Assembly: GCA_017515465.1 (NCBI GenBank)
Contig: JAFWFV010000005.1
Coordinates: forward strand, 22,728 to 86,727
From: Clostridiales bacterium
GTDB taxonomy: Bacteria; Bacillota; Clostridia; Saccharofermentanales; Saccharofermentanaceae
Direction: 5' to 3'
Length of the DNA: 64,000 nucleotides
Part shown: piece by piece, positions 12,186-49,778 of the stretch
How the letters are laid out: the number at the start of each line of letters is the position of its first letter
Numbering within the stretch: the first letter of the stretch is position 1
Notes under the pieces: generated by a model
Seen by the model: the letters and a program-made list of their open reading frames with translations, nothing else
Databases searched by the model: none
What the model was told of the DNA's origin: nothing
Translations under genes and position numbers: made by a program

Positions 12186-13742
12186 TCAGCCTACTCTGCC
12201 AAATGCATTGTCTTCAGCCTGTCTGTAGAAGGATACTCTGTAGATGCCGGCGCTTCCAACTGTTTCCAGTGTCACGCTGATACCGTCGCCGTTGGATGCA
12301 ACGTAGTTATGCATGTCTCCGTTTGTGTCTTCATAACCATCGTATGTGAATCCGGCATTCTTGAGAGCTTCGATATATGCCTCTATCTGCTCTTCACTCC
12401 AGGGAGTGCTGTAGTAGATGGAGAAGGCGTCACTGGCGAGAGGTTCACCCTCGACCATGAATCTGGCGAGATCAGGATGATCCTCAACCCTGGTTCCTGC
12501 GGGAAGATTCAGTTCAACATCCACCTCGGGACCGTTCAGTACAGGCAGATCGATGCCGAGAATATTGTCGTTCCTGATAGAGATGTCTGCAGAGGAAGCC
12601 TCAGTATCAGCTGTTTCCGCAACATCCGCCGTAACCTCTCCGCTCTCATCATCCATATTGATGACGACGCCATTATCATCCTCATCAACAAAGACCTGTA
12701 CTGTTGTCTCGTCGGTCATATCATTTACTTCAGCCTCATCAGAAACAACTGTTGCTTCAGATGTTTCATCAGATACGGCGTCCTCATCGGCGAATGTCCT
12801 GGCATTAAACAGACATACGAGTCCGACTCCTGCCACGAGCATCAGTGCTGATGTGGTGATCAGCTTGGATGCTCCCTTATAACCCAACACGTTTTTAATC
12901 CTCATCTTTACTTCCTTTCCGCCTGAAGCTCTGTTACTGAACGCTACAGGCACTACGATGTACTTGGAGCTGTTGCTCCTGCGGGCGAAGGAAACGAGAG
13001 ACATTGTGTAATCCACTTTAACGTCCTCACCCAGTCTGGCGATAACTTCCTCGTCACAGCTCATCTCCATATCCCGTACGAACATGGAATAAGCTATCCA
13101 TACGAGGGGATTGAACCAGTGAATGACAACCACTGCCAGACCCAATGTCTTGAAGAAGACATCACCTCTCCTGATGTGGGTCTTCTCATGAAGGATCAGG
13201 TAATCCAGTTCGTCGCGGGACAGTCCTGCGGGCATGTATATCCTCGGACGGATTATCCCCATAACGAAGGGTGAATCTATCTCATGCCCCGAGTACAGTC
13301 CGGGAGCTATCTGTTTCACATCCCTGAGAGCGGTCCTGACAGTTACGTACTGATGGATGATGTATATAACTATCCCGATGGCGATGGCAGCCCATATGGC
13401 TGTCAGCACTATGGGAACATAATTGACACCCGTTCTGTTGTTCATAACTGTCTGTGAGACATCTCTGACGGTTTCAGATACGTTCCGTGGTCCGTTCCCG
13501 TACTGTATCAGCGGCAGGTTCTTCACATGCTCCACCGAATTCCTGATCGGCTTGATGTTAAAGATGGAAATGCTCGATTCCAATGCTACCGGGCAAAGAA
13601 GCCTGAACCCGACGATGCCCCACAACAGATACATGTATTTCTTGGGCATCTTCTTCATTATCATCCTGGCCAGTAAGACCACCAGGATAACGATGCTTCC
13701 GGTGAGGCTCATATGCAGTATATTCATTAATAATCCATTCAT
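12186..13742 (-). CDS. blaR1: BlaR1/MecR1-type M56 sensor metalloprotease
   Basis: A 518-residue membrane protein. Four hydrophobic segments frame a cytoplasmic zinc protease domain whose motif HEKTH lies in LILHEKTHIRRGD near residue 185, with the downstream glutamate in DMEMSCDEE near 230. After the last segment (about 305-322) comes a roughly 195-residue extracellular tail, very acidic at first (330-400) and then a small folded region. It lacks the penicillin-binding sensor domain of true BlaR1, so the signal is probably not a beta-lactam directly. It is co-transcribed with the BlaI-type repressor, which it is expected to inactivate by proteolysis. Confidence 0.88.
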   Translation of the reverse strand: MNGLLMNILHMSLTGSIVILVVLLARMIMKKMPKKYMYLLWGIVGFRLLCPVALESSISIFNIKPIRNSVEHVKNLPLIQYGNGPRNVSETVRDVSQTVMNNRTGVNYVPIVLTAIWAAIAIGIVIYIIHQYVTVRTALRDVKQIAPGLYSGHEIDSPFVMGIIRPRIYMPAGLSRDELDYLILHEKTHIRRGDVFFKTLGLAVVVIHWFNPLVWIAYSMFVRDMEMSCDEEVIARLGEDVKVDYTMSLVSFARRSNSSKYIVVPVAFSNRASGGKEVKMRIKNVLGYKGASKLITTSALMLVAGVGLVCLFNARTFADEDAVSDETSEATVVSDEAEVNDMTDETTVQVFVDEDDNGVVINMDDESGEVTADVAETADTEASSADISIRNDNILGIDLPVLNGPEVDVELNLPAGTRVEDHPDLARFMVEGEPLASDAFSIYYSTPWSEEQIEAYIEALKNAGFTYDGYEDTNGDMHNYVASNGDGISVTLETVGSAGIYRVSFYRQAEDNAFGRVG

Positions 13743-13763
13743 ATGCTCTACCCCGTGCGGTCG

Positions 13764-14129
13764 TCAGTTAACGTTCCTGTACTTATCTATGAGTTCTATG
13801 AGTTCATCAGCTTCGCTGTCCGTGAGCTTTCTGTCGCCCAGGAAAGAAGCGAGAAAAGAAGGAAGTGATCCTCCAAATGACTTTGTCACGAGCCTCTCGC
13901 TCTCAAACCTCTGAACTCTGTCTCTGGGGATAAGCACGGATACCATTGCGTCGTCATTACGGACCATGCCCTTGGCCACGAGCTTACGTAATATGGTGTA
14001 TGTAGTCGATTTCTTCCAGTCCAGTTCGCTCTCGCAGAGCCTGACCAGCCTGCCGGATTCAACCGGTGCATAACGCCAGATCACGTCCATAAGACGGTAC
14101 TCACTCTCGCATAACATCAATTCGTCCAT
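13764..14129 (-). CDS. blaI: BlaI/MecI-family repressor
   Basis: A 121-residue winged-helix repressor. The family pattern is clear: ESEYRLMDVIWRYAPVES for the first helices, then the recognition region KKSTTYTILRKLVAKGMV near residues 40-57, and a C-terminal dimerisation helix. The mid-protein site usually cut by the partner protease cannot be placed with certainty. It lies 21 bases upstream of the M56 protease gene. A long dyad sits immediately before the gene, consistent with autorepression. Confidence 0.9.
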   Translation of the reverse strand: MDELMLCESEYRLMDVIWRYAPVESGRLVRLCESELDWKKSTTYTILRKLVAKGMVRNDDAMVSVLIPRDRVQRFESERLVTKSFGGSLPSFLASFLGDRKLTDSEADELIELIDKYRNVN

Positions 14130-14291: not shown

Positions 14292-15572
14292 TTAGAGGTT
14301 GTTGACCGTTCCTATGAACACCGGAGTATTGTCCGTAGTATCCACGATGGCATAGGCAAAAGGTCTGTCACATTCAACGCGTCTTATGTTATCGTCACCG
14401 ATCATGGCACCCGTGGCGCGGATCGATACAGCCGTTACCGCGGCAGCTCTCGTTCCCGCACTGTCCACTTCGATATGTGTCTTGTGGATGACATCTCCTA
14501 TATAGAGATTGCCATCTTCGAGTTCAGCAATACCGGTCAGATCTGCTCCTGCCGGAGAGAAGGCATCCGTCATGCCCAGATCCCGGAGTGTCCCGGCAAA
14601 GCTGTCACCATAGTCATATTCGAATTCGGGGAGCGTTGCGAACACCTGGTATTCGTATGTCTGGCTGTCCATGAATCCATTGAAATCATCACCTGTAAAA
14701 TCCGCCAGAAAACTGTCTGCATCGCAGTCCTCATCCTTGGGGAGCATTACGACGAAAGCATACTGGCATCCCTCATAGAACTTGATGAATCCCGTGGCAT
14801 CATCGTTTTCCAGATACAGGCCTTCCTCGCTGTTGAGCATGGTAACATCCGATTCCGTGCCGTCACTGTTCCTGAATGTGCCGTCATGAACCTGATGTTC
14901 CTCATACTGCTGCTGCCAGGATCCGTCGAAAGCTATGGCATTGAGGAGCATCATCGCGGTATTGGGTTCAAAGGAGTCTATGATCTTGTCTATCATCCCG
15001 TCTGTATTGTCATTCACCCATCCGTTGATCCTGTCCAGGGCAGCATCATCAAGATCGAGCATGTTGACCTCGGAATCATAATTGTCCCTGACGAAATCAA
15101 CATAATCATCCTTTAGTACGCCTGCCAGGATCTGCTGATTGATCCACATTGAATCAGCCGCATGCATGCTTACTCCTTCGGAGCTGTTCAGCCTGTCCAG
15201 AAGCTCAGCTGCATAGGACAGCTGTCCGTCACTGTCCTCCTGCCCTCCCCACAGCGCTGCCATCTGATCTCTCGTCGTTCCGTGTGCCCCGGCCTCAGCC
15301 ATGGACAGTGCGATCATGATGGATGCAGGTGATATCATAACGTTCGTGCCATTACCTGTCTTATTCCTGAGCAGGTCGAAAGCAGTATTGAGATATGCTC
15401 TCCTGTATTGTTCATTCTCGGATTCATCGAGCGTCCTGAGCTCTGCACTCATGGGTGCACCTGCGATCCTGTCGGGTATTACCTGCTCAGTGGGATCAGT
15501 TTCCCCTTTGCAGGCACTTACGGCTCCTGTCATCAGTGATGCCGCCAGGATGGATGCTAAGATCTTTTTCAT
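14292..15572 (-). CDS. Serpin-family protease inhibitor, lipoprotein
   Basis: A 426-residue serpin, a suicide inhibitor that traps serine (sometimes cysteine) proteases. The signal ends with a lipobox-like VSAC at residues 18-21, so it should be anchored outside the cell. Serpin blocks visible include NVMISPASIMIALSMAEAGA near 80, MMLLNAIAFDGSW near 207, and the hinge DSAGTRAAAVTAVSI near 375 with its run of small residues, which is what inhibitory serpins need. Counting from the hinge, the scissile bond is about Thr-Gly in RATGAM, with an Arg two residues before. The end DRPFAYAIVD...PVFIGTVNN is the usual serpin finish. It lies upstream of the BlaI/BlaR1 pair, same strand, but with a hairpin between them. 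The target protease is unknown. Confidence 0.92.
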   Translation of the reverse strand: MKKILASILAASLMTGAVSACKGETDPTEQVIPDRIAGAPMSAELRTLDESENEQYRRAYLNTAFDLLRNKTGNGTNVMISPASIMIALSMAEAGAHGTTRDQMAALWGGQEDSDGQLSYAAELLDRLNSSEGVSMHAADSMWINQQILAGVLKDDYVDFVRDNYDSEVNMLDLDDAALDRINGWVNDNTDGMIDKIIDSFEPNTAMMLLNAIAFDGSWQQQYEEHQVHDGTFRNSDGTESDVTMLNSEEGLYLENDDATGFIKFYEGCQYAFVVMLPKDEDCDADSFLADFTGDDFNGFMDSQTYEYQVFATLPEFEYDYGDSFAGTLRDLGMTDAFSPAGADLTGIAELEDGNLYIGDVIHKTHIEVDSAGTRAAAVTAVSIRATGAMIGDDNIRRVECDRPFAYAIVDTTDNTPVFIGTVNNL

Positions 15573-15630: not shown

Positions 15631-15661
15631 TTGCAACAACGTGCAAAAATAGTTTTATAAT
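15631..15661 (+). promoter_or_regulatory. Candidate promoter of the barnase-like gene
   Basis: TTGCAA (15631-15636) and a perfect TATAAT (15656-15661) are 19 bp apart, a long spacer. The TATAAT ends 6 bases before the chosen ATG, which would make the mRNA leaderless or nearly so. No Shine-Dalgarno is seen. TTGCA and TGCAA also form a small dyad here (15631-15646) that a regulator could use. Confidence 0.45.
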
Positions 15662-15667
15662 GTGGAC

Positions 15668-16204
15668 ATGGGCTCATTATTAAAAAGAATACTGTCAGTT
15701 ATAACCATTATATCTCTTGCCGCGGGCATCTCCGGATGTGCGGTGCCCGAATGGTCATACGAGACTGCTTCAGAGACCACTGGGTTCACATCGGCAACTT
15801 CATCAGAAACCACCGGAAATACTGAAACTACGGCAACTTCAGAAACGGAGGCTCTGATCGACGAGGACGGTGCCTATACTCATGCGGATGATGTTGCACT
15901 TTATATCCATACCTACGGACATCTGCCTCACAATTTCATCACAAAGCGCCAGGCCCGCGAACTGGGATGGAGCTCAGGAGGATTGGACGACTATCTCTAT
16001 GAGGGATGCATCGGCGGGGACAGGTTCGGCAATTATGAGGAGACGCTGCCTGAGGCAGATGGCCGCGATTACTTCGAGTGTGACATCGATACGATGCATC
16101 AGCGCTCCAGGGGCGCCAAAAGAATTGTATATTCAGATGATGGTCTGATATACTACACAGTGGACCATTACTCTACATTTGAACTGCTTTACGGGGAGCC
16201 CTGA
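15668..16204 (+). CDS. Barnase-like secreted ribonuclease, lipoprotein
   Basis: A 178-residue protein: lipoprotein signal with lipobox ISGC (Cys24), a Ser/Thr/Glu-rich linker (about 30-66), then a barnase-fold domain (70-175). Aligning by eye with Bacillus barnase, the general base Glu73 is E137 (FECDID), Arg83 and Arg87 are R148 and R152 (RGAKRIVYS), His102 is H167 (TVDHYSTF) and Lys27 is K93 (ITKRQARELGW). Barnase Glu60 is kept (E124), but Arg59, which touches both RNA and barstar, is Tyr123. It should cleave RNA on the cell surface. Start ATG 15668 is chosen; an in-frame GTG at 15662 is possible. The downstream gene begins with a barstar fold, the matching inhibitor. Confidence 0.9.
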   Translation: MGSLLKRILSVITIISLAAGISGCAVPEWSYETASETTGFTSATSSETTGNTETTATSETEALIDEDGAYTHADDVALYIHTYGHLPHNFITKRQARELGWSSGGLDDYLYEGCIGGDRFGNYEETLPEADGRDYFECDIDTMHQRSRGAKRIVYSDDGLIYYTVDHYSTFELLYGEP

Positions 16205-16208
16205 TCAG

Positions 16209-18386
16209 ATGAACAATGCCATCTACATCAACCTGACTGGTATACCGGGCAAGGAAGCCCTGCATGCAATACTTAAGGAAGCACTGGAGCTGCCTGACTA
16301 TTACGGCGCCAATCTCGATGCCCTTAAGGACATGCTGACATCCCTGGATACTCCCAAACATCTGGAGATATTCGGCATAGATGATGTGGATCCTGCGATC
16401 AAGACATACGTTCCCAAACTTCAGAGGGTCCTGGAGGAATCTCACGAAGAGAACTCCCTGTTCACATTTAAGGTGAGCGCTAATCCCGCTCCGCCGGACC
16501 GCAGACCACTGGTCGTATGCGGATCATGGGAAGATGCCGAGAACCTCAACATGTTCCTGGCCAACCTGAATTTCCCGGAACTGACATCCAGATATGTTGT
16601 TTGCTGCTTTACTTTCGGAACGGCCGCCATGACCGGCTTTTCCAAGTCACAGATAGAGTTCAAGCTTGCTGATACGATCAAAAAGCTCGAACCCGTAGGC
16701 ATGATCATATTCGCAGAGATGCTCAAATCACCCTATCTCACGGAATACCTGGCGGATATCGGCCATAATTCCAACATTCCCGTGTTCATGCTGGAGCATG
16801 ATGAGGAGGGCTGCATCAATTTCAAGCTCGACTATCTGGACGGCTTCAGGAAGCTGGTCACCCATGTGGTTGAGGATCACCACTGCACAGACCTGATGAT
16901 GATGGCCGGGTTCAAGGGCAACCTCTTTTCCGAGGACAGGATCAGGGTCTTTAAGGATGTCCTCACATCACATGATATCCCCTTCGACAGCAACAAGGTC
17001 ATTTATGGTGATTTCTGGTACATCCCTGCCAAGCAGGCACTGCAGGAATACTTTGATGAGAACGGATACGTTCTGCCGGAGGCCATAATCTGTGCCAACG
17101 ATACAATGGCCATGGGCACATGTGACTATCTGATAGAAAAGGGATACCGTATCCCTGACGACTGCATCGTAACAGGCTTTGACGGTATCAAGGATTCGCT
17201 GTTCCACTATCCCACCATCACCACAGCAGCCCCAGACTATTCACAGGCGGCACATAACATCATATCTGCCATAGATGAATGGTACGAAACGGGCACGGTT
17301 GAGACATGGACTCACAAGATTGGCTACAAGCCTCTGTATAAGCACTCCTGCGGATGCAATCTCACGACCATGGAGGAGATGCAGAACATTTCCTCTGCTC
17401 TGTTCAAGGACAATCAGGACTACTTCATGCACGTTCACGAGATGGGACGTCTGACATCCAAGGCCATAACGATAGCTGACACAAAGCTCCTGTCCGCCTT
17501 CCTGGACAAGCACCTGTGGCTGTGGAAGGATCAGATGTTCTTTGTCGGCATAACGGAATCCGATAAGTGCATCAATGCCCTCTATTCCTCATGGAAGGAC
17601 ATCTATGAATACGGCAACAAGATCTATAATTCAGAATATCTGCTCCCCTATCAGAACGAGATGTTCGCATCCGGCAGCGGGCTTAATTACCTCATATTCA
17701 GCCAGCTGAGGTCAGCAGATGAATCCTACGGCTATCTCTGCACAGGTGCGAAGAGCATTTCCCTGAGACTGCAGCAGAGGTTCGAGGAGATGGAATCCTA
17801 TATATCCTCCATCGTCCATGCCGTCCTGAACAACAAAAAGCTCATGAACGTCAACCGAGAGATGAAGCAGCTCTCTGAGCTGGACTATCTGACCGGACTA
17901 TATAACAGGAGAGGGTTCCTCTCCCACGTTGCCAAGATGGTCAAGGACCCCAAATACAAGGGAAAGATCTTCAATTACGTAACGATGGATCTGGACAATC
18001 TGAAACCCATCAACGATAACTACGGCCATCAGGAGGGGGATACGGTCATCAAGGCCCTGGCCTATGCAATACAGACCAGGGTGCACAAGATCGGCATCTC
18101 ATCCAGGTTCGGCGGTGATGAGTTTGCTTTCGTGATAATAAGTGACAAAGCCCTCGACGGAGAATCCGACACCCTCAGGAACGAGCTGGAGGCGTCTGCG
18201 GAATACGATTCCAATCTGACGGGCAAGCCCTACAGAGTCCTCGCCAGCATCGGCGTTTCTTCCTGCCCCATCTCGGAATTCCCTTCCGGAAAGATAGATT
18301 CCACTCTCGAGAAGCTGATGAACCGTGCCGACGAGATGATGTATTCCGACAAGGAAAAAAGACATAAGGACCAGTCCGGGGACTGA
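16209..18386 (+). CDS. Barstar - LacI-type sensor - GGDEF fusion protein
   Basis: A 725-residue cytoplasmic protein (no membrane segment). Residues 1-90 match barstar: LPDYYGANLDALKDML keeps the two inhibitory aspartates (D37, D41, barstar Asp35 and Asp39), and a Glu-rich helix VLEESHEEN follows at the place of barstar Glu76. Residues about 95-390 form a LacI/GalR-like periplasmic-binding fold without a DNA-binding helix (ICANDTMAMGTCDYLIEKGY; VTGFDGIKDS). A linker of about 150 residues leads to a GGDEF domain (about 555-725) with LDYLTGLYNRRGF and FGGDEF at 634-639. The allosteric RxxD site before GGDEF is absent (HKIG). It starts 4 bases after the ribonuclease stop with GGGGAG as RBS. Expected activities: binding the ribonuclease, sensing a ligand, and making cyclic di-GMP. 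Confidence 0.88.
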   Translation: MNNAIYINLTGIPGKEALHAILKEALELPDYYGANLDALKDMLTSLDTPKHLEIFGIDDVDPAIKTYVPKLQRVLEESHEENSLFTFKVSANPAPPDRRPLVVCGSWEDAENLNMFLANLNFPELTSRYVVCCFTFGTAAMTGFSKSQIEFKLADTIKKLEPVGMIIFAEMLKSPYLTEYLADIGHNSNIPVFMLEHDEEGCINFKLDYLDGFRKLVTHVVEDHHCTDLMMMAGFKGNLFSEDRIRVFKDVLTSHDIPFDSNKVIYGDFWYIPAKQALQEYFDENGYVLPEAIICANDTMAMGTCDYLIEKGYRIPDDCIVTGFDGIKDSLFHYPTITTAAPDYSQAAHNIISAIDEWYETGTVETWTHKIGYKPLYKHSCGCNLTTMEEMQNISSALFKDNQDYFMHVHEMGRLTSKAITIADTKLLSAFLDKHLWLWKDQMFFVGITESDKCINALYSSWKDIYEYGNKIYNSEYLLPYQNEMFASGSGLNYLIFSQLRSADESYGYLCTGAKSISLRLQQRFEEMESYISSIVHAVLNNKKLMNVNREMKQLSELDYLTGLYNRRGFLSHVAKMVKDPKYKGKIFNYVTMDLDNLKPINDNYGHQEGDTVIKALAYAIQTRVHKIGISSRFGGDEFAFVIISDKALDGESDTLRNELEASAEYDSNLTGKPYRVLASIGVSSCPISEFPSGKIDSTLEKLMNRADEMMYSDKEKRHKDQSGD

Positions 18387-44896: not shown

Positions 44897-47077
44897 TCAC
44901 AACTGCTGACGGGCAACCAGTTCCGCGAACACTCCGTTCTTCTGCATCAGTTCATCATAAGTTCCTGATTCCGCGATCCTGCCCTCTTCCATAACGAAGA
45001 TCCTGTCACAGCTCTGAACGGTTGAAAGGCGGTGTGCCACCACGATCCTGGTGGTGCCCTTCAATTGGGCAAGGGAATCGGCAACGTGTTTCTGGGCAAT
45101 GTTATCCAATGCACTGGTCGCTTCATCAAAGATCAGCATCTTACGCTCTCCGCAGATTGCACGGGCGATGAGCAGCCTCTGGCGCTGACCGCCTGATATG
45201 CCTCCTCCGCCTTCGGTTATGATCGTGTGCATCCCCATCGGCATCTTTCTGATATCATCGGCGATCCCGACCATCTCGGCTGCTCTCCATGCATCCTCTT
45301 CTGTTGCGGACGGCGTGGAAAGAATGATATTACTGAAGATATCTCCGTGGAAGAGACTGCTGTTCTGCATTACAGTACCGATATGACGGCGCAGCGAGTG
45401 AACATCCACGTTGGACACATCGTGGTGCCCGCAGAATACGTTCCCCTTGACCGGAGTCTCAAAGCCGAGCAGTAAACGTACTATCGTTGATTTTCCGCAT
45501 CCGGACCGGCCGACAAATGCGACGTATTCACCGGGTCTTACCGTAAAGGAGAGATCTTCGAGCACCCAGGGACTGTTTTCCTCATAACGGAATGAAACGT
45601 TATTGACTTTCACACCGCCATTAAGTTCGGTCACCATGTACTTATCCCTGGATACATCCGGAGCGGTCTCGAAAATGGGCCTGCTCATCTCATACAGCGG
45701 TCTAATCTTCACTGCGCTTGCGATCAGGCCGGAAAGAGACATTACCGATGCGGTCATCATTCCGTAGGCAGTGGAGAAAGTCATGAAATCAGCAACGGAC
45801 AACTGTTCGCTCCCCGCAATGTAATAAATGACGATGGTTCCAAACAGACCGATCATGGTAACACATGCAGGCAATGCACGGACAAATCCGGGACGGTTAT
45901 ATGCGGAGCGGGCATATTCGGCATAGTCGTGAGCCCACTTAGCGAAAGCACGGTTCTCCGCACCTGACAGCTTTATCTTTTGAACGCCGTTTAGCAATGT
46001 GGTGACCGTTCCGGACAGCTTTGCGCCGGAGTTCATCGTATCCATCTCGAACCGTGCCGTTACCCGGACCGAAGCCACGATGAATATGATCTGCAGCAGA
46101 ACAGTCAGGAAAGCTGTTCCTGTCAGCTCCGGGGTATAGTGGAAGATCTGCCCGATATAGACCAATGACAGGAGCGCGTTCAGACCGGCGCCCATTACCA
46201 GTGCGGTCAGTTCCTGCGTCAGCTGACTCATCTTCATTATCCTGTTCGACAGATTTCCGGAAGAATACTTTCTGAAAAAGGACGGATGAAACATCAGGAC
46301 GCGGGCATAGACCGCCGCTTCGATATTGATCTGCAGTTTTGTCGTAACGCGGTTTATCACCAGATTACGGCCGGTATTGATCAGGAGCGTTGATACCATG
46401 ACTCCCAGGAGCAGTGCGGCGATCGGCGGGATCAGATAGAGCTTGCCGGATGGAATAACGATGCCGAAGGCTATCTGGTGTACCCATGCGGGCAGCAGTC
46501 CGATCAGCGCGCAAGCCAGAGCGGCAGCCAGAACTTTAAGATATTCTCTCTGACTGAATGAACCGAATATAAAGTTGACCAGATCTCTTATTTTCAATGA
46601 CCTTGCAGGCAGAGGGGGATAGAACAGTATCACTTTGTCATCCAGCTGTTCCTCTGTCTTGCCGGTGACGGGAATCTTTTTCCCCGTAACCGGTTCAATA
46701 TAATCGTAGCCGAACATCTTTCTCGGCAGGATAGCAACGGGAGATCCGTTCTTCAGCTTTCCCACCATGGCACCAAATGTTTTCTTATGCCAGTTCTTAG
46801 TAAGTGATACGGAGCGGTGCATGGTACCGCTGGGTCTGCAGATATAGTCAGTCCTTTCCTCAGTATCGGGAACGCTGCCGGGAACCGCACCGGCCTCAAC
46901 ATGGTAATGCTCCAGACATATCATCACAGCTTTGTCGAATAATTCCAGATTATCGGTCTGATAGACAACGCGTTCCTCCGGAGGCAGAACGCTGGAGGCA
47001 AGCTCTGCGTAAGCCTTCTCGGTGATCTCCGCATCCAGACGGGACCTGGCTTCCATCTGCGATTCGTTATATTCCAT
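44897..47077 (-). CDS. NHLM-type bacteriocin ABC transporter without peptidase
   Basis: A 726-residue half-transporter: a soluble N-terminal domain (about 1-150), a six-segment membrane domain (about 160-440) and an ATPase (Walker A GRSGCGKSTIVRLLLG near 510, signature ISGGQRQRLLIARAI near 612, Walker B MLIFDEATSALD). It pairs with the C39-peptidase ABC gene directly upstream, whose stop overlaps its RBS region, as in the NHLM bacteriocin export system. Its long N-terminal domain without cyclic-nucleotide motif is the second-subunit hallmark. ATG 47077, after AGGAG, is chosen over a longer start inside the previous gene. Confidence 0.88.
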   Translation of the reverse strand: MEYNESQMEARSRLDAEITEKAYAELASSVLPPEERVVYQTDNLELFDKAVMICLEHYHVEAGAVPGSVPDTEERTDYICRPSGTMHRSVSLTKNWHKKTFGAMVGKLKNGSPVAILPRKMFGYDYIEPVTGKKIPVTGKTEEQLDDKVILFYPPLPARSLKIRDLVNFIFGSFSQREYLKVLAAALACALIGLLPAWVHQIAFGIVIPSGKLYLIPPIAALLLGVMVSTLLINTGRNLVINRVTTKLQINIEAAVYARVLMFHPSFFRKYSSGNLSNRIMKMSQLTQELTALVMGAGLNALLSLVYIGQIFHYTPELTGTAFLTVLLQIIFIVASVRVTARFEMDTMNSGAKLSGTVTTLLNGVQKIKLSGAENRAFAKWAHDYAEYARSAYNRPGFVRALPACVTMIGLFGTIVIYYIAGSEQLSVADFMTFSTAYGMMTASVMSLSGLIASAVKIRPLYEMSRPIFETAPDVSRDKYMVTELNGGVKVNNVSFRYEENSPWVLEDLSFTVRPGEYVAFVGRSGCGKSTIVRLLLGFETPVKGNVFCGHHDVSNVDVHSLRRHIGTVMQNSSLFHGDIFSNIILSTPSATEEDAWRAAEMVGIADDIRKMPMGMHTIITEGGGGISGGQRQRLLIARAICGERKMLIFDEATSALDNIAQKHVADSLAQLKGTTRIVVAHRLSTVQSCDRIFVMEEGRIAESGTYDELMQKNGVFAELVARQQL

Positions 47078-47078
47078 A

Positions 47079-49238
47079 TCAGTTACTCCTGACCAATGCT
47101 GCATATGCACCATTTTGCTCCATCAGTTGCTGATGACCGCCGCGTTCCTTAACCTTACCATTCTCCAGTACGATTATCTCATCACAATCACGGATCGTGC
47201 TCAGACGGTGTGCTATGACAACGCAGCTGATCCCTCTGTCACGAATGTGACTGATAACCTGTTCCTCCGTCTGCGCATCCAGAGCGCTTGTTGCCTCATC
47301 GAGGATGAGCAGTGTCGGAGCCGTAGCCAGAGCATGAGCTATCTCCATTCTCTGCAGCTGTCCGCCGGAGAAGTTCTTGCCTCCCGGCTGTATCATTACG
47401 TGATAACCGCCTGAACGTGCAATGATATCATCATGGACTTCCGCATCCCTGCATGCCATGATCATCTCGTAATCCTCTATGGACTGATCCCAGAGCTTGA
47501 TATTGTTGGCAAAGGAATCTTCAAATGTGACCATATCCTGATCGACCATCGTAACGGAATTATGGAATACTGCCTTCGGGATCTTTTCCAGAGGTATCCC
47601 GTCCAGCAGGATCTCGCCGGACCATGCGGGATAAAGACCGGTGATCAGTTTTGCGATCGTCGACTTGCCGCAGCCGCTGGAACCCACCAGGGCGATCCAT
47701 TTACCGGGTTCCAATGTAAGCGAAAGGCCTTCGATCAAGGGCGGATCCAGAGGGGAATAACCGAATGTCACATCCTTCAGCTCGAGCTTTCCCTGCAGCT
47801 TTTTCTGCAAGTCAAAGCCCTCAGGTATGTCCTGTTCAGCTGTCTCATCTACATCTGCAGGATAGCGCATTACATCCTCGATACGCTCCATCTGGGTCGT
47901 TGCCTCCTGGATCGTCTGACCCAGGCCGATAAGCTGCGAAACAGGCGTCATGAAGGCCGACAGGAAACCGGAAAAGGAGAGCAGTGCGCCGGGAGTGAAA
48001 TCACCCTGGATTATCAGCCGGATGCCGAGCAGCAGGACCAGTATATTGGCGAACTGGCACAGAGCGTTCGGGATCATTCCCAGGTATTCATTGATATAGG
48101 ACAGCAGAGTCCTGTCATTGCTGACCAGCGCCTGGTATCCGGCCCAGCGGCTGAAAAACTGGTTTTCCGCACCGGATGCCTGGATGGTCTCTATCATGTC
48201 GATTCCGCTGACAGTTGTACCATACATCTTGCCCGCATTGGCAGAGAGCCTCCTGGTCGCATTGATGCGTTTCCTGGAGACCATGCGTGCAACGAACACG
48301 TTGAGGAATACGGCACATATGCCGACACATGTCAAAAGCGGGCTGTAATTGAGCATAATGATCAGATACAGGATCAGCATTATCCCATTGATCAGAACGG
48401 GGGCGATCTGAACGACCATTGCATAGACGATACTCTCGTTATCGATCTGGCGCATCTGCAGATCGCCTGTGGACCTCATGGCATAAAACCGGACCGGAAG
48501 CCTGAGCAGATGCTGCATAAAACGGGACGACGAAACAACTGCAGTCTTGCCCTGTATCTTGACCAGATATATCGAATTGATGATCGCGATGGTTCCCTGG
48601 ATCAATGCGAGGACCAGCATGATCAAAACCATGGGTACCAGCCATTCCGTATTGTAGCCCGACAGTATGCGGTCCAGAAAGACTGTTCCTGATGACGTGA
48701 AAAGGATCGCCGCCAGAGAGGTAACGGCGGTTGTCAGTGTCACCAGCAATAATGCGGATTTCATCCCTTTGAGACGTGTTCTGATATACCCTGCCGTATC
48801 GGGTCTGGTCCCTCCGGGGATAAAGGCTTCTGTAAGCTTAAATATAAGTGCTATGCCTGTGAAGCAATCATCGAATTCACTGCGGCTCACGGCGATATGT
48901 CCCCGGGCGGGGTCGTTGATCCATACCTTGTTTCCTCGGAAGCCGTCGACTACGACAAAGTGATTGAAGTTCCAGTAAGCGACACAGGGAAAGAGCCCCT
49001 GCTTACGCATGCCATCCAGACTTATTGCCATGCCCTTGGCTTCCATGCCATATGAACGGGCTGCCCTCAGTATGTTCGTGATCTTCGAGCCGTCACGGCT
49101 GACTCCGCAGTCTGTCCTGACCTGTTCCAGAGGGATCCATTTTCCGTAATATGCACAGATCATTGCCAGGCAGGCAGCCCCGCATTCCACGCTTTCCATC
49201 TGCATGATCTGGGGAACTTTTGCGATCTTTGTGCTCAT
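47079..49238 (-). CDS. C39 peptidase-containing peptide ABC exporter
   Basis: A 719-residue transporter whose first 140 residues are a C39 cysteine protease: catalytic Cys19 in QMESVECGAACLAM, His in NFNHFVVVDGF near 92 and Asp in WINDPARG near 108. Then a membrane domain (about 160-440) and an ATPase (GSSGCGKSTIAKLITGLY near 515, FSGGQLQRMEIAHAL near 622, LILDEATSALDA). It should cut the precursor after its GG motif and pump out the peptide. With the second ABC gene, the membrane fusion-type protein at 49263 and the precursor at 49901 it forms a complete export cassette. Confidence 0.93.
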   Translation of the reverse strand: MSTKIAKVPQIMQMESVECGAACLAMICAYYGKWIPLEQVRTDCGVSRDGSKITNILRAARSYGMEAKGMAISLDGMRKQGLFPCVAYWNFNHFVVVDGFRGNKVWINDPARGHIAVSRSEFDDCFTGIALIFKLTEAFIPGGTRPDTAGYIRTRLKGMKSALLLVTLTTAVTSLAAILFTSSGTVFLDRILSGYNTEWLVPMVLIMLVLALIQGTIAIINSIYLVKIQGKTAVVSSSRFMQHLLRLPVRFYAMRSTGDLQMRQIDNESIVYAMVVQIAPVLINGIMLILYLIIMLNYSPLLTCVGICAVFLNVFVARMVSRKRINATRRLSANAGKMYGTTVSGIDMIETIQASGAENQFFSRWAGYQALVSNDRTLLSYINEYLGMIPNALCQFANILVLLLGIRLIIQGDFTPGALLSFSGFLSAFMTPVSQLIGLGQTIQEATTQMERIEDVMRYPADVDETAEQDIPEGFDLQKKLQGKLELKDVTFGYSPLDPPLIEGLSLTLEPGKWIALVGSSGCGKSTIAKLITGLYPAWSGEILLDGIPLEKIPKAVFHNSVTMVDQDMVTFEDSFANNIKLWDQSIEDYEMIMACRDAEVHDDIIARSGGYHVMIQPGGKNFSGGQLQRMEIAHALATAPTLLILDEATSALDAQTEEQVISHIRDRGISCVVIAHRLSTIRDCDEIIVLENGKVKERGGHQQLMEQNGAYAALVRSN

Positions 49239-49262
49239 ATTTCCGGTCTTCCTATCTGGTGA

Positions 49263-49778
49263 TTACGGATTCAGGATCAGGTCGATCGGGTGCACTGATC
49301 TCGTGTGGATCACTGCATCCACTGTTGTCATGGATGTTCCGTGACCACGTCCGAAAGCGGGGGTTTTATTGCCGGGTTCAAGTGTGACCTGATAGCACTT
49401 GTTTGAAGTGACCAGTTCGGAAACCAGAAAATCACTTTTGATTATCCCGTATGCCATATCTCTCGATAGGGGAACAGAGGAACACTCCGTGACGACCCAT
49501 GGAGAATGGTCGATATAGACCGGATCACCGACCCTTACCAGCTGATACTCGTCAGCCGGGAGAAAGCAGCACATCTTGCCGTCCACCATAGCCGCACGCG
49601 TATCCACCGTCGTTGCAGCAGTACCCCAGAATGCCCAGATGATAAGGCCGATCAGCAATGCAGAAGCCGCGCCCAAAACTATCCAAACGCCCGGAGAGGT
49701 GAGGTGCACATACTGCTCCAGGTCGTCTGTAGTCTTTAGTTTTTTCATCGCCTTATCACTGAAGATCTGATCTGGCAT
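49263..49778 (-). CDS. Short HlyD/NHLM secretion-type membrane protein
   Basis: A 171-residue protein: a cytoplasmic start (about 1-28), one hydrophobic segment (about 30-52) and an extracytoplasmic beta-rich domain (VDGKMCCFLPADEYQLVRVGDPVYID near 65, cited shortened). This is a shortened version of the NHLM secretion proteins related to HlyD. It should bridge the transporter to the cell surface. It lies between the precursor gene and the C39 transporter in the operon; the usual helical hairpin of full-size HlyD proteins is missing. Confidence 0.75.
   Translation of the reverse strand: MPDQIFSDKAMKKLKTTDDLEQYVHLTSPGVWIVLGAASALLIGLIIWAFWGTAATTVDTRAAMVDGKMCCFLPADEYQLVRVGDPVYIDHSPWVVTECSSVPLSRDMAYGIIKSDFLVSELVTSNKCYQVTLEPGNKTPAFGRGHGTSMTTVDAVIHTRSVHPIDLILNP

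What the first reader, a model, noticed from the sequence alone, without database searches (positions are those of the whole stretch)
15668..18386. Barnase-like secreted RNase coupled to a barstar-sensor-GGDEF fusion
The first gene encodes a lipoprotein whose last 110 residues match barnase, with the catalytic Glu, two Arg and His retained. The second, starting four bases later, begins with an 90-residue barstar fold (both inhibitory Asp kept) joined to a LacI-like ligand domain and a GGDEF diguanylate cyclase. Barstar normally stands alone; as an N-terminal cap of a second-messenger enzyme it would let the cell read out free RNase in the cytoplasm, or let the ligand control how well the RNase is neutralised. 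I know of LacI-like/GGDEF fusions in Clostridia but not of one headed by barstar.
Basis: partly seen in the sequence, partly recalled or inferred. Interest (0 to 1): 0.95.

Follow-up and report, generated by a model that had tools for sequence, protein, structure and literature searches.

The report
RNase inhibitor wired to c-di-GMP enzyme
In a small group of Saccharofermentans-like bacteria, the barstar-type inhibitor predicted to block the cell's own surface RNase is built as the head of a sugar-receptor-like protein with a c-di-GMP-making type of domain, so catching the RNase would likely both protect the cell and change its internal signalling.

Summary
Window 15668-16204 encodes a predicted lipoprotein barnase. 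Four bases later, 16209-18386 encodes one 725-residue protein: barstar (1-90), LacI-like core (98-383), an unassigned middle domain, and GGDEF with intact motifs. It is no artefact: 16 protein clusters share the architecture, down to 41% identity, and group as one clade (SH-aLRT 94).

It does not always follow barnase. Of 8 fusion genomes, 5 have barnase directly upstream; in 3, barnase sits on another contig without a barstar beside it, and the fusion is the only barstar found with both inhibitory Asp. All 8 carry barnase. So the fusion is probably the working immunity protein, also in trans.

The parts
15631..15661 (+). Promoter-like TTGCAA-19-TATAAT just upstream of the barnase ATG (possible leaderless start)
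   Evidence: read by eye; no transcript data, no scan run
15668..16204 (+). Barnase-like predicted lipoprotein gene, 178 aa
   Evidence: (PF00545, 66 bits)
15668..15739 (+). Predicted lipoprotein signal peptide with lipobox ISG|C
   Evidence: sequence by eye; hydropathy peak 2.24 at residue 8
15893..16186 (+). Barnase domain (residues 76-173), K27/E73/R83/R87/H102 kept, R59 to Tyr
16193..16198 (+). GGGGAG Shine-Dalgarno-like site inside the barnase 3' end, ahead of the fusion's ATG
   Evidence: by eye
16209..18386 (+). Fusion gene barstar - LacI-like core - middle domain - GGDEF, 725 aa
16209..16478 (+). Barstar head (residues 1-90)
16317..16331 (+). DALKD: the two inhibitory Asp (D37, D41 = barstar D35, D39)
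   Evidence: kept in 16 of 16 fusions
16500..17357 (+). LacI-like ligand-binding core (residues 98-383), no HTH in front
17370..17828 (+). Middle alpha/beta domain between two long helices (residues 388-540), unassigned
   Evidence: secondary structure; no Pfam match
17880..18362 (+). GGDEF diguanylate cyclase domain (residues 558-718), motif GGDEF at 18111-18125, no RxxD I-site
14292..15572 (-). Divergent serpin lipoprotein gene; a serpin gene lies near the fusion at all 4 cis loci long enough to test (downstream in L002), not at the 3 trans fusion loci

Best explanation
A predicted lipoprotein barnase gene is followed, four bases on, by one gene that joins barstar, a LacI-like ligand core and a GGDEF domain, and binding of the RNase to the barstar head likely both neutralises it and alters c-di-GMP synthesis. 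Proposed mechanism: the fusion stays in the cytoplasm (no signal peptide or membrane segment seen), where it would catch barnase that has not yet left or has leaked back. LacI-like cores pair up and normally pass changes between ligand pocket and DNA-binding head (recalled). Here the head is barstar, so RNase occupancy, probably together with a small ligand, would shift the dimer and thus the paired GGDEF domains. Shown: gene order, one conserved frame, barstar fold in the model, kept inhibitory and catalytic residues, kept cyclase motifs, barnase in all 8 fusion genomes, purifying selection in the one usable pair. Inferred: binding, immunity, coupling to the cyclase, and its sign.
For: Architecture and fold. 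One old origin: 16 fusion clusters, one group in a 100-row tree (SH-aLRT 94, quick method). Inhibitory Asp kept in 16 of 16 fusions and in 49 of 49 distinct standalone barstars collected at E <= 1e-5 from fetched loci; barnase K27, E73, R83, R87, H102 kept in 55 of 55 distinct barnases. All 8 fusion genomes carry barnase. In 3 (G049, G054, G073) barnase lies behind sirtuin- and CPBP-protease-like genes (names by eye), with pfkA next in two and beyond one inserted gene in G049, and no barstar-like ORF beside it; the fusion lies behind hpt and ftsH on another contig. In 2 of these 3 the fusion is the only barstar match; G049 has one more, divergent, with Asn in place of D35. Of 66 barnase genomes among 198 relatives 65 also have a barstar; the exception is cut by a contig end. 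Exchangeable head: the nearest relatives of the core mostly carry GH16 (43 of the 120 listed), with one or both catalytic Glu lost in 32 of 43; others have no head. The barstar ends about where LacI residue 60 aligns, the place of the DNA-binding head. GGDEF and substrate motifs kept in 16 of 16. The genome has 27 GGDEF matches (26 over the cut-off, some of them pieces of one domain) and 11 EAL matches. dN/dS barstar 0.14, LacI 0.04, GGDEF 0.06 in the one unsaturated pair.
Against: No binding, inhibition or cyclase assay exists, and no complex was modelled. Two residues that are strong contacts in barnase-barstar (recalled: R59, W38) are replaced here (Tyr, Lys), so affinity may differ. Barnase is predicted to be exported and barstar not, so they meet only before export or after leakage. 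Six of 71 barstar genomes have no barnase match, so barstar does not always need barnase. No PilZ receptor was found in the genome, while the control rang in 5 genomes; c-di-GMP riboswitch searches were blank but so were their controls. The GH16 heads could be passive as well. The cis barnases and the trans barnases form two separate clades, so the history is not simple co-inheritance. The barstar-domain tree alone does not recover the 16 fusions as one clade (79 columns; 8% of bootstrap trees).
Confidence: 0.5

Rival explanations
1. Passive immunity: the barstar head neutralises barnase, but being joined to the cyclase has no signalling effect; fusion merely secures co-production.
For: RNase gene followed by inhibitor gene is the ordinary arrangement: 45 of 50 distinct adjacent pairs in the fetched loci have a standalone barstar, several in the same genus.
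Against: In 3 of 8 genomes the fusion is kept without linkage to barnase, so co-production is not the reason. A 725-residue carrier is costly and was kept down to 41% identity. Relatives put another recognition-type domain in the same slot.
Confidence: 0.22
2. Ligand-gated inhibitor: a sugar-like ligand in the LacI core sets how tightly the head holds the RNase, as inducer sets the grip of LacI on DNA; c-di-GMP is a second output.
For: The barstar sits in the position of the DNA-binding head, before about LacI residue 60; thermodynamic linkage makes this the mirror image of the best explanation.
Against: No ligand known; releasing an active RNase inside the producing cell would be harmful unless it is exported or the aim is growth arrest.
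Confidence: 0.13
3. Repurposed barstar: the domain no longer binds barnase and only helps dimerisation or binds another protein.
For: W38 and barnase R59 are replaced; 3 of 8 genomes lack linkage; 6 of 71 barstar genomes have no barnase match.
Against: Both inhibitory Asp kept in 16 of 16; all 8 fusion genomes keep barnase; they would then hold a barnase with intact catalytic residues but no usual barstar, whereas 65 of 66 barnase genomes have a barstar match.
Confidence: 0.1
4. Artefact: two genes joined by a sequencing or assembly error.
For: None found.
Against: 16 clusters of 717-730 aa and 8 genomes.
Confidence: 0.01

Closest known systems
Barnase-barstar pair (PF00545 / PF01337)
   Different: RNase is a predicted lipoprotein; inhibitor is the head of a 725-residue signalling-type protein, unlinked in 3 of 8 genomes; R59/W38 contact replaced
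LacI-like (Peripla_BP_3)-GGDEF proteins of Clostridia
   Same: Same core and cyclase; 721 relatives at E <= 1e-20, 120 listed
   Different: Most of the listed distant ones start directly at the core; here a barstar precedes it
GH16-LacI-like-GGDEF relatives (found here; no paper seen)
   Same: Among the nearest relatives of the core (36-44% identity), a recognition-type domain in the same N-terminal slot, no signal peptide by hydropathy
   Different: Head is a mostly degraded GH16 beta-glucanase domain, in some with a CBM-like stretch, instead of barstar
LacI/GalR repressors (LacI, CcpA, PurR)
   Different: No DNA-binding head, barstar in its place; GGDEF at the C terminus
Imm-barstar of polymorphic toxin systems (PMC3482391, passages read)
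   Same: Barstar with DxxxD tied to barnase-like toxin, toxin-immunity gene order
   Different: No large toxin with trafficking domains or cassettes; immunity domain is fused to a second-messenger-type enzyme

Membership tests
Barnase-type RNase (PF00545) | Profile match over curated cut-off | tested here: met
   66 bits against 24
Barnase-type RNase (PF00545) | Catalytic Lys27, Glu73, Arg83, Arg87, His102 | tested here: met
   kept in 55 of 55 distinct barnases aligned, the window's included
Barnase-type RNase (PF00545) | RNA cleavage | not testable with these tools
   needs assay
Barstar (PF01337) | Profile match over curated cut-off | tested here: met
   58.8 bits against 23.4
Barstar (PF01337) | Barstar fold | tested here: met
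Barstar (PF01337) | Inhibitory Asp35 and Asp39 (DxxxD) | tested here: met
   16 of 16 fusions
Barstar (PF01337) | Binds and inhibits barnase | not testable with these tools
   no complex prediction available
LacI/GalR repressor | LacI-like ligand core | tested here: met
LacI/GalR repressor | N-terminal helix-turn-helix DNA-binding head | tested here: not met
   no HTH family among the 5 Pfam matches up to E 1; the LacI-family matches shown by NCBIfam (25 of 33 listed) lie within 157-394; barstar occupies the place
Diguanylate cyclase (GGDEF) | GGDEF signature and D-x-D..ND..GH substrate motif | tested here: met
   16 of 16 fusions
Diguanylate cyclase (GGDEF) | Makes c-di-GMP | not testable with these tools
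   needs assay; RxxD inhibitory site absent in 16 of 16
Polymorphic toxin system | Large multidomain toxin with trafficking/repeat domains and C-terminal toxin cassette | tested here: not met
   178-aa protein with only the PF00545 match in Pfam
Known anti-phage defence system | PADLOC model match | tested here: not met
   0 families for either protein

The most novel reading that the evidence does not exclude
A LacI-type switch whose DNA-binding head was exchanged for an RNase-binding head: cells read their own exported RNase into c-di-GMP, and an inducer-like ligand tunes the grip on the RNase. The wider chassis is a plug-in sensor platform, in which enzyme inhibitors (barstar) or worn-out enzymes (GH16) serve as exchangeable recognition heads of a diguanylate cyclase.
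Probability: 0.35. Interest if true: 0.9.

Novelty: new variant of a known kind. Interest (0 to 1): 0.75.

Why it matters
Barnase-barstar is the textbook protein-protein pair, and barstar is known as a plain inhibitor. If the fusion signals, an immunity protein doubles as a receptor and a toxin-like RNase becomes an intracellular signal. As far as I found, that would be the first protein ligand for a LacI-type cyclase, and it would make the old question of what secreted barnases do for their makers directly testable, with c-di-GMP as the readout. The GH16 relatives suggest a general route by which enzymes and inhibitors turn into sensor heads.

Tried and rejected
Frame error or mis-assembly: rejected. 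'Always behind barnase': rejected, 3 of 8 unlinked. An assembly split as the reason for the missing linkage: unlikely in these three, whose two loci both have genes on either side; in another genome, G043, barnase and standalone barstar do look split by contig ends. An unseen barstar beside the unlinked barnases: the ORFs of 45 aa and more listed around the three barnases showed none, by eye. The unlinked barnase loci as remnants of the standalone operons elsewhere: not supported, the flanking SIR2, CPBP, pfkA and ACS genes matched in no fetched locus of another genome, but many of those loci are only about 3 kb. The separate barstar in G049 as inhibitor: it lacks D35; it fell below the E <= 1e-5 of the collection and is not among the 49.

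W38/R59 covariation: in 50 adjacent pairs W38 occurs only with R59 (4 of 4) and His38 only with Tyr59 (14 of 14), but lineage was not corrected for, so I give it little weight. dN/dS: five of six pairs have saturated or high dS; only one is usable.

The whole-model fold search was filled by LacI chains; the barstar part was then folded alone. The middle domain was not searched alone. c-di-GMP riboswitch searches gave nothing, with blank controls, so they are inconclusive. Rfam on the window at gathering threshold: 0. A search for further fusions like P0028 found only itself, so its neighbours are unknown. P0015 (610 aa, starts inside the core) was left out as a likely fragment. The core tree left out 20 of the 120 listed proteins (4 partial, 16 GH16 rows to thin the set). 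Barstar frames of 207-295 aa in the class and phylum samples were not examined.

Literature. Lists were complete for 31, 46, 60, 71 and 84 and capped for 32 (20 of 253), 45 (15 of 18), 72 (10 of 29) and 83 (10 of 195). No title or abstract start described a barstar-GGDEF fusion. Passages were read in six papers; all three papers holding both 'barstar' and 'GGDEF' were checked so, for 'barstar' alone in PMC9394441: no passage shown joins the two. One of them reports that loss of a Salmonella gene with a Barstar-like domain raised swarming (PMC4534456, passage).

Full report
WHAT IS THERE. Window 15668-16204 (+) encodes a 178-residue protein with a lipoprotein-type signal (lipobox by eye), a Ser/Thr-rich linker and a barnase domain (PF00545, 66 bits). 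Four bases after its stop, 16209-18386 encodes 725 residues in one frame: Barstar, Peripla_BP_3 and GGDEF, all over their curated cut-offs. No membrane segment is seen in the second protein (highest 19-residue hydropathy 0.95, against 2.24 in the RNase signal), so it is predicted to be cytosolic.

HOW CONSERVED. A whole-database search with residues 1-125 gave 14 proteins, all 722-730 aa and all with the full architecture. A search with the core (residues 96-545) gave 721 relatives at E <= 1e-20, 120 listed; 16 of the 120 carry barstar, including P0028 at 41% identity. In a tree of 100 core sequences the 16 form one group (SH-aLRT 94; quick method, P0028 on a long branch). The tree of the short barstar domains does not recover the 16 as one group. 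In the family (115 genomes) 61 have barstar, 8 of them as the fusion, all in the window's genus. Class-wide (391) and phylum-wide (398) samples held no fusion of this kind beyond G000 and G049; the other barstar frames reach at most 295 aa. The contig lengths of four of the eight (G031, G036, G051, G076) equal those of the named records (UBA3708, RUG14124, RUI031, YRB3002), so I take them as the same.

PARTNER. All 8 fusion genomes have barnase. In 5 (G000, G031, G036, G051, G076) it lies directly upstream; these five barnases form one clade (100/99). In 3 (G049, G054, G073) the fusion stands behind hpt and ftsH (3 of 3). There barnase stands on another contig behind sirtuin- and CPBP-protease-like genes (3 of 3), with pfkA next in G054 and G073 and beyond an inserted gene in G049, and with no barstar-like ORF beside it (gene names by eye). 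These three barnases form another clade (98/88). In G054 and G073 the fusion is the only barstar match in the genome; G049 has one more, with Asn in place of D35. Of 66 barnase genomes among 198 relatives, 65 have a barstar; the one without has its barnase cut by a contig end. The reverse is looser: 6 of 71 barstar genomes have no barnase match. From this I infer that the fusion is the working inhibitor, also when unlinked. Incomplete assemblies (86-98% for the three) leave room for a missed barstar.

RESIDUES. The inhibitory Asp pair is kept in 16 of 16 fusions and in 49 of 49 distinct standalone barstars collected from fetched loci; the barnase catalytic residues in 55 of 55. R59 of barnase is Tyr in 32 of 55, the window's included, and barstar W38 is Lys, Tyr, His, Met or Gln in the fusions. 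In the classical pair these two are strong contacts (recalled), so the interface differs in detail. GGDEF and substrate motifs are kept in 16 of 16; the RxxD feedback site is absent in all 16. In the one pair with usable dS, dN/dS is 0.14 (barstar), 0.04 (LacI), 0.06 (GGDEF).

THE SLOT. The nearest relatives of the core that lack barstar mostly carry a GH16 domain before the same core (43 of the 120 listed by the Pfam column; six such proteins from fetched loci also checked by Pfam), some also a CBM-like stretch; a few near ones (P0022, P0032) have no head. The 43 have no signal peptide by hydropathy (highest 0.47). In the aligned catalytic motif 11 of 43 keep both Glu; 32 lost one or both (MAFFT alignment, motif read by me). 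More distant relatives mostly start straight at the core. Two standalone barstars of the same genus, those of G017 and G001, end at the residue aligned with fusion residue 91, the domain boundary (DNA of G017). So the head looks like an exchangeable module, and the GH16 case suggests that it recognises rather than catalyses. That is the main ground for reading the barstar as an input domain; it is an analogy, not a test.

HOW IT LIKELY WORKS. RNase that has not been exported, or has leaked back, would bind the barstar head and be neutralised. Because the head sits where LacI repressors pass allosteric change, occupancy would alter the core dimer and the paired GGDEF domains, changing c-di-GMP. 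A small ligand in the core probably tunes this. The sign is unknown. The genome has 27 GGDEF matches (26 over the cut-off, some pieces of one domain) and 11 EAL matches, so c-di-GMP is probably in use; no PilZ receptor was found.

KNOWN OR NEW. Barnase-barstar pairs and LacI-like-GGDEF proteins are both known. A review of c-di-GMP inputs mentions the periplasmic-binding-like domain as a putative solute or sugar sensor, and the word barstar does not occur in it (PMC8846402, word search and one passage). The polymorphic-toxin survey ties Imm-barstar to barnase-like toxins (PMC3482391, passages). Nine searches (four lists capped) showed nothing on a barstar-GGDEF fusion; subscription papers are mostly not held. 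I file it as a new variant of a known kind. It is not a LacI repressor: the DNA-binding head was looked for and is absent.

LIMITS. No complex was modelled and nothing was assayed. Binding, immunity and signalling are inferred.

Noticed in passing
L112, L114, L117, L118, L122, L126 and 43 proteins among P0017-P0067: Cytosolic-looking GH16 (some with CBM-like stretch) fused to LacI-like-GGDEF; 32 of 43 lost one or both catalytic Glu. Possibly glycan sensors made from worn-out beta-glucanases.
   Followed up: partly
P0111: A relative of the core with a NUDIX match (PF00293, name recalled), C-terminal by eye.
   Followed up: no
window 14292-15572 (-); L002, L004, L005: Serpin lipoprotein gene (266 bits) near all 4 cis loci that are long enough to test, two copies in L002 and L005.
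   Followed up: partly
L003, L005 (barnase ORFs): The barnase lipoproteins carry about 80-90 extra residues between signal and barnase domain; in L005 no Pfam match there (L003 not scanned).
   Followed up: partly
window 15656-15668: TATAAT ends six bases before the barnase ATG, so the transcript may be leaderless.
   Followed up: no
window 44897-49778 (-): Peptidase C39 ABC exporter and second ABC exporter with a short membrane-anchored protein (by eye), a bacteriocin-export-like set.
   Followed up: partly
window 12186-14129 (-): BlaR1-type M56 peptidase gene next to a BlaI/MecI-like regulator (by eye).
   Followed up: partly
L043 2464-2868: Divergent barstar-like protein of G049 with Asn in place of D35, between leucine-rich-repeat-like genes (by eye), no barnase match beside it.
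   Followed up: partly
genome G000: 27 GGDEF and 11 EAL matches but no PilZ: the c-di-GMP receptor is unknown.
   Followed up: partly
G022, G032, G037, G110, G124, G181: Barstar match without a barnase match; G110's lies at a contig end.
   Followed up: no
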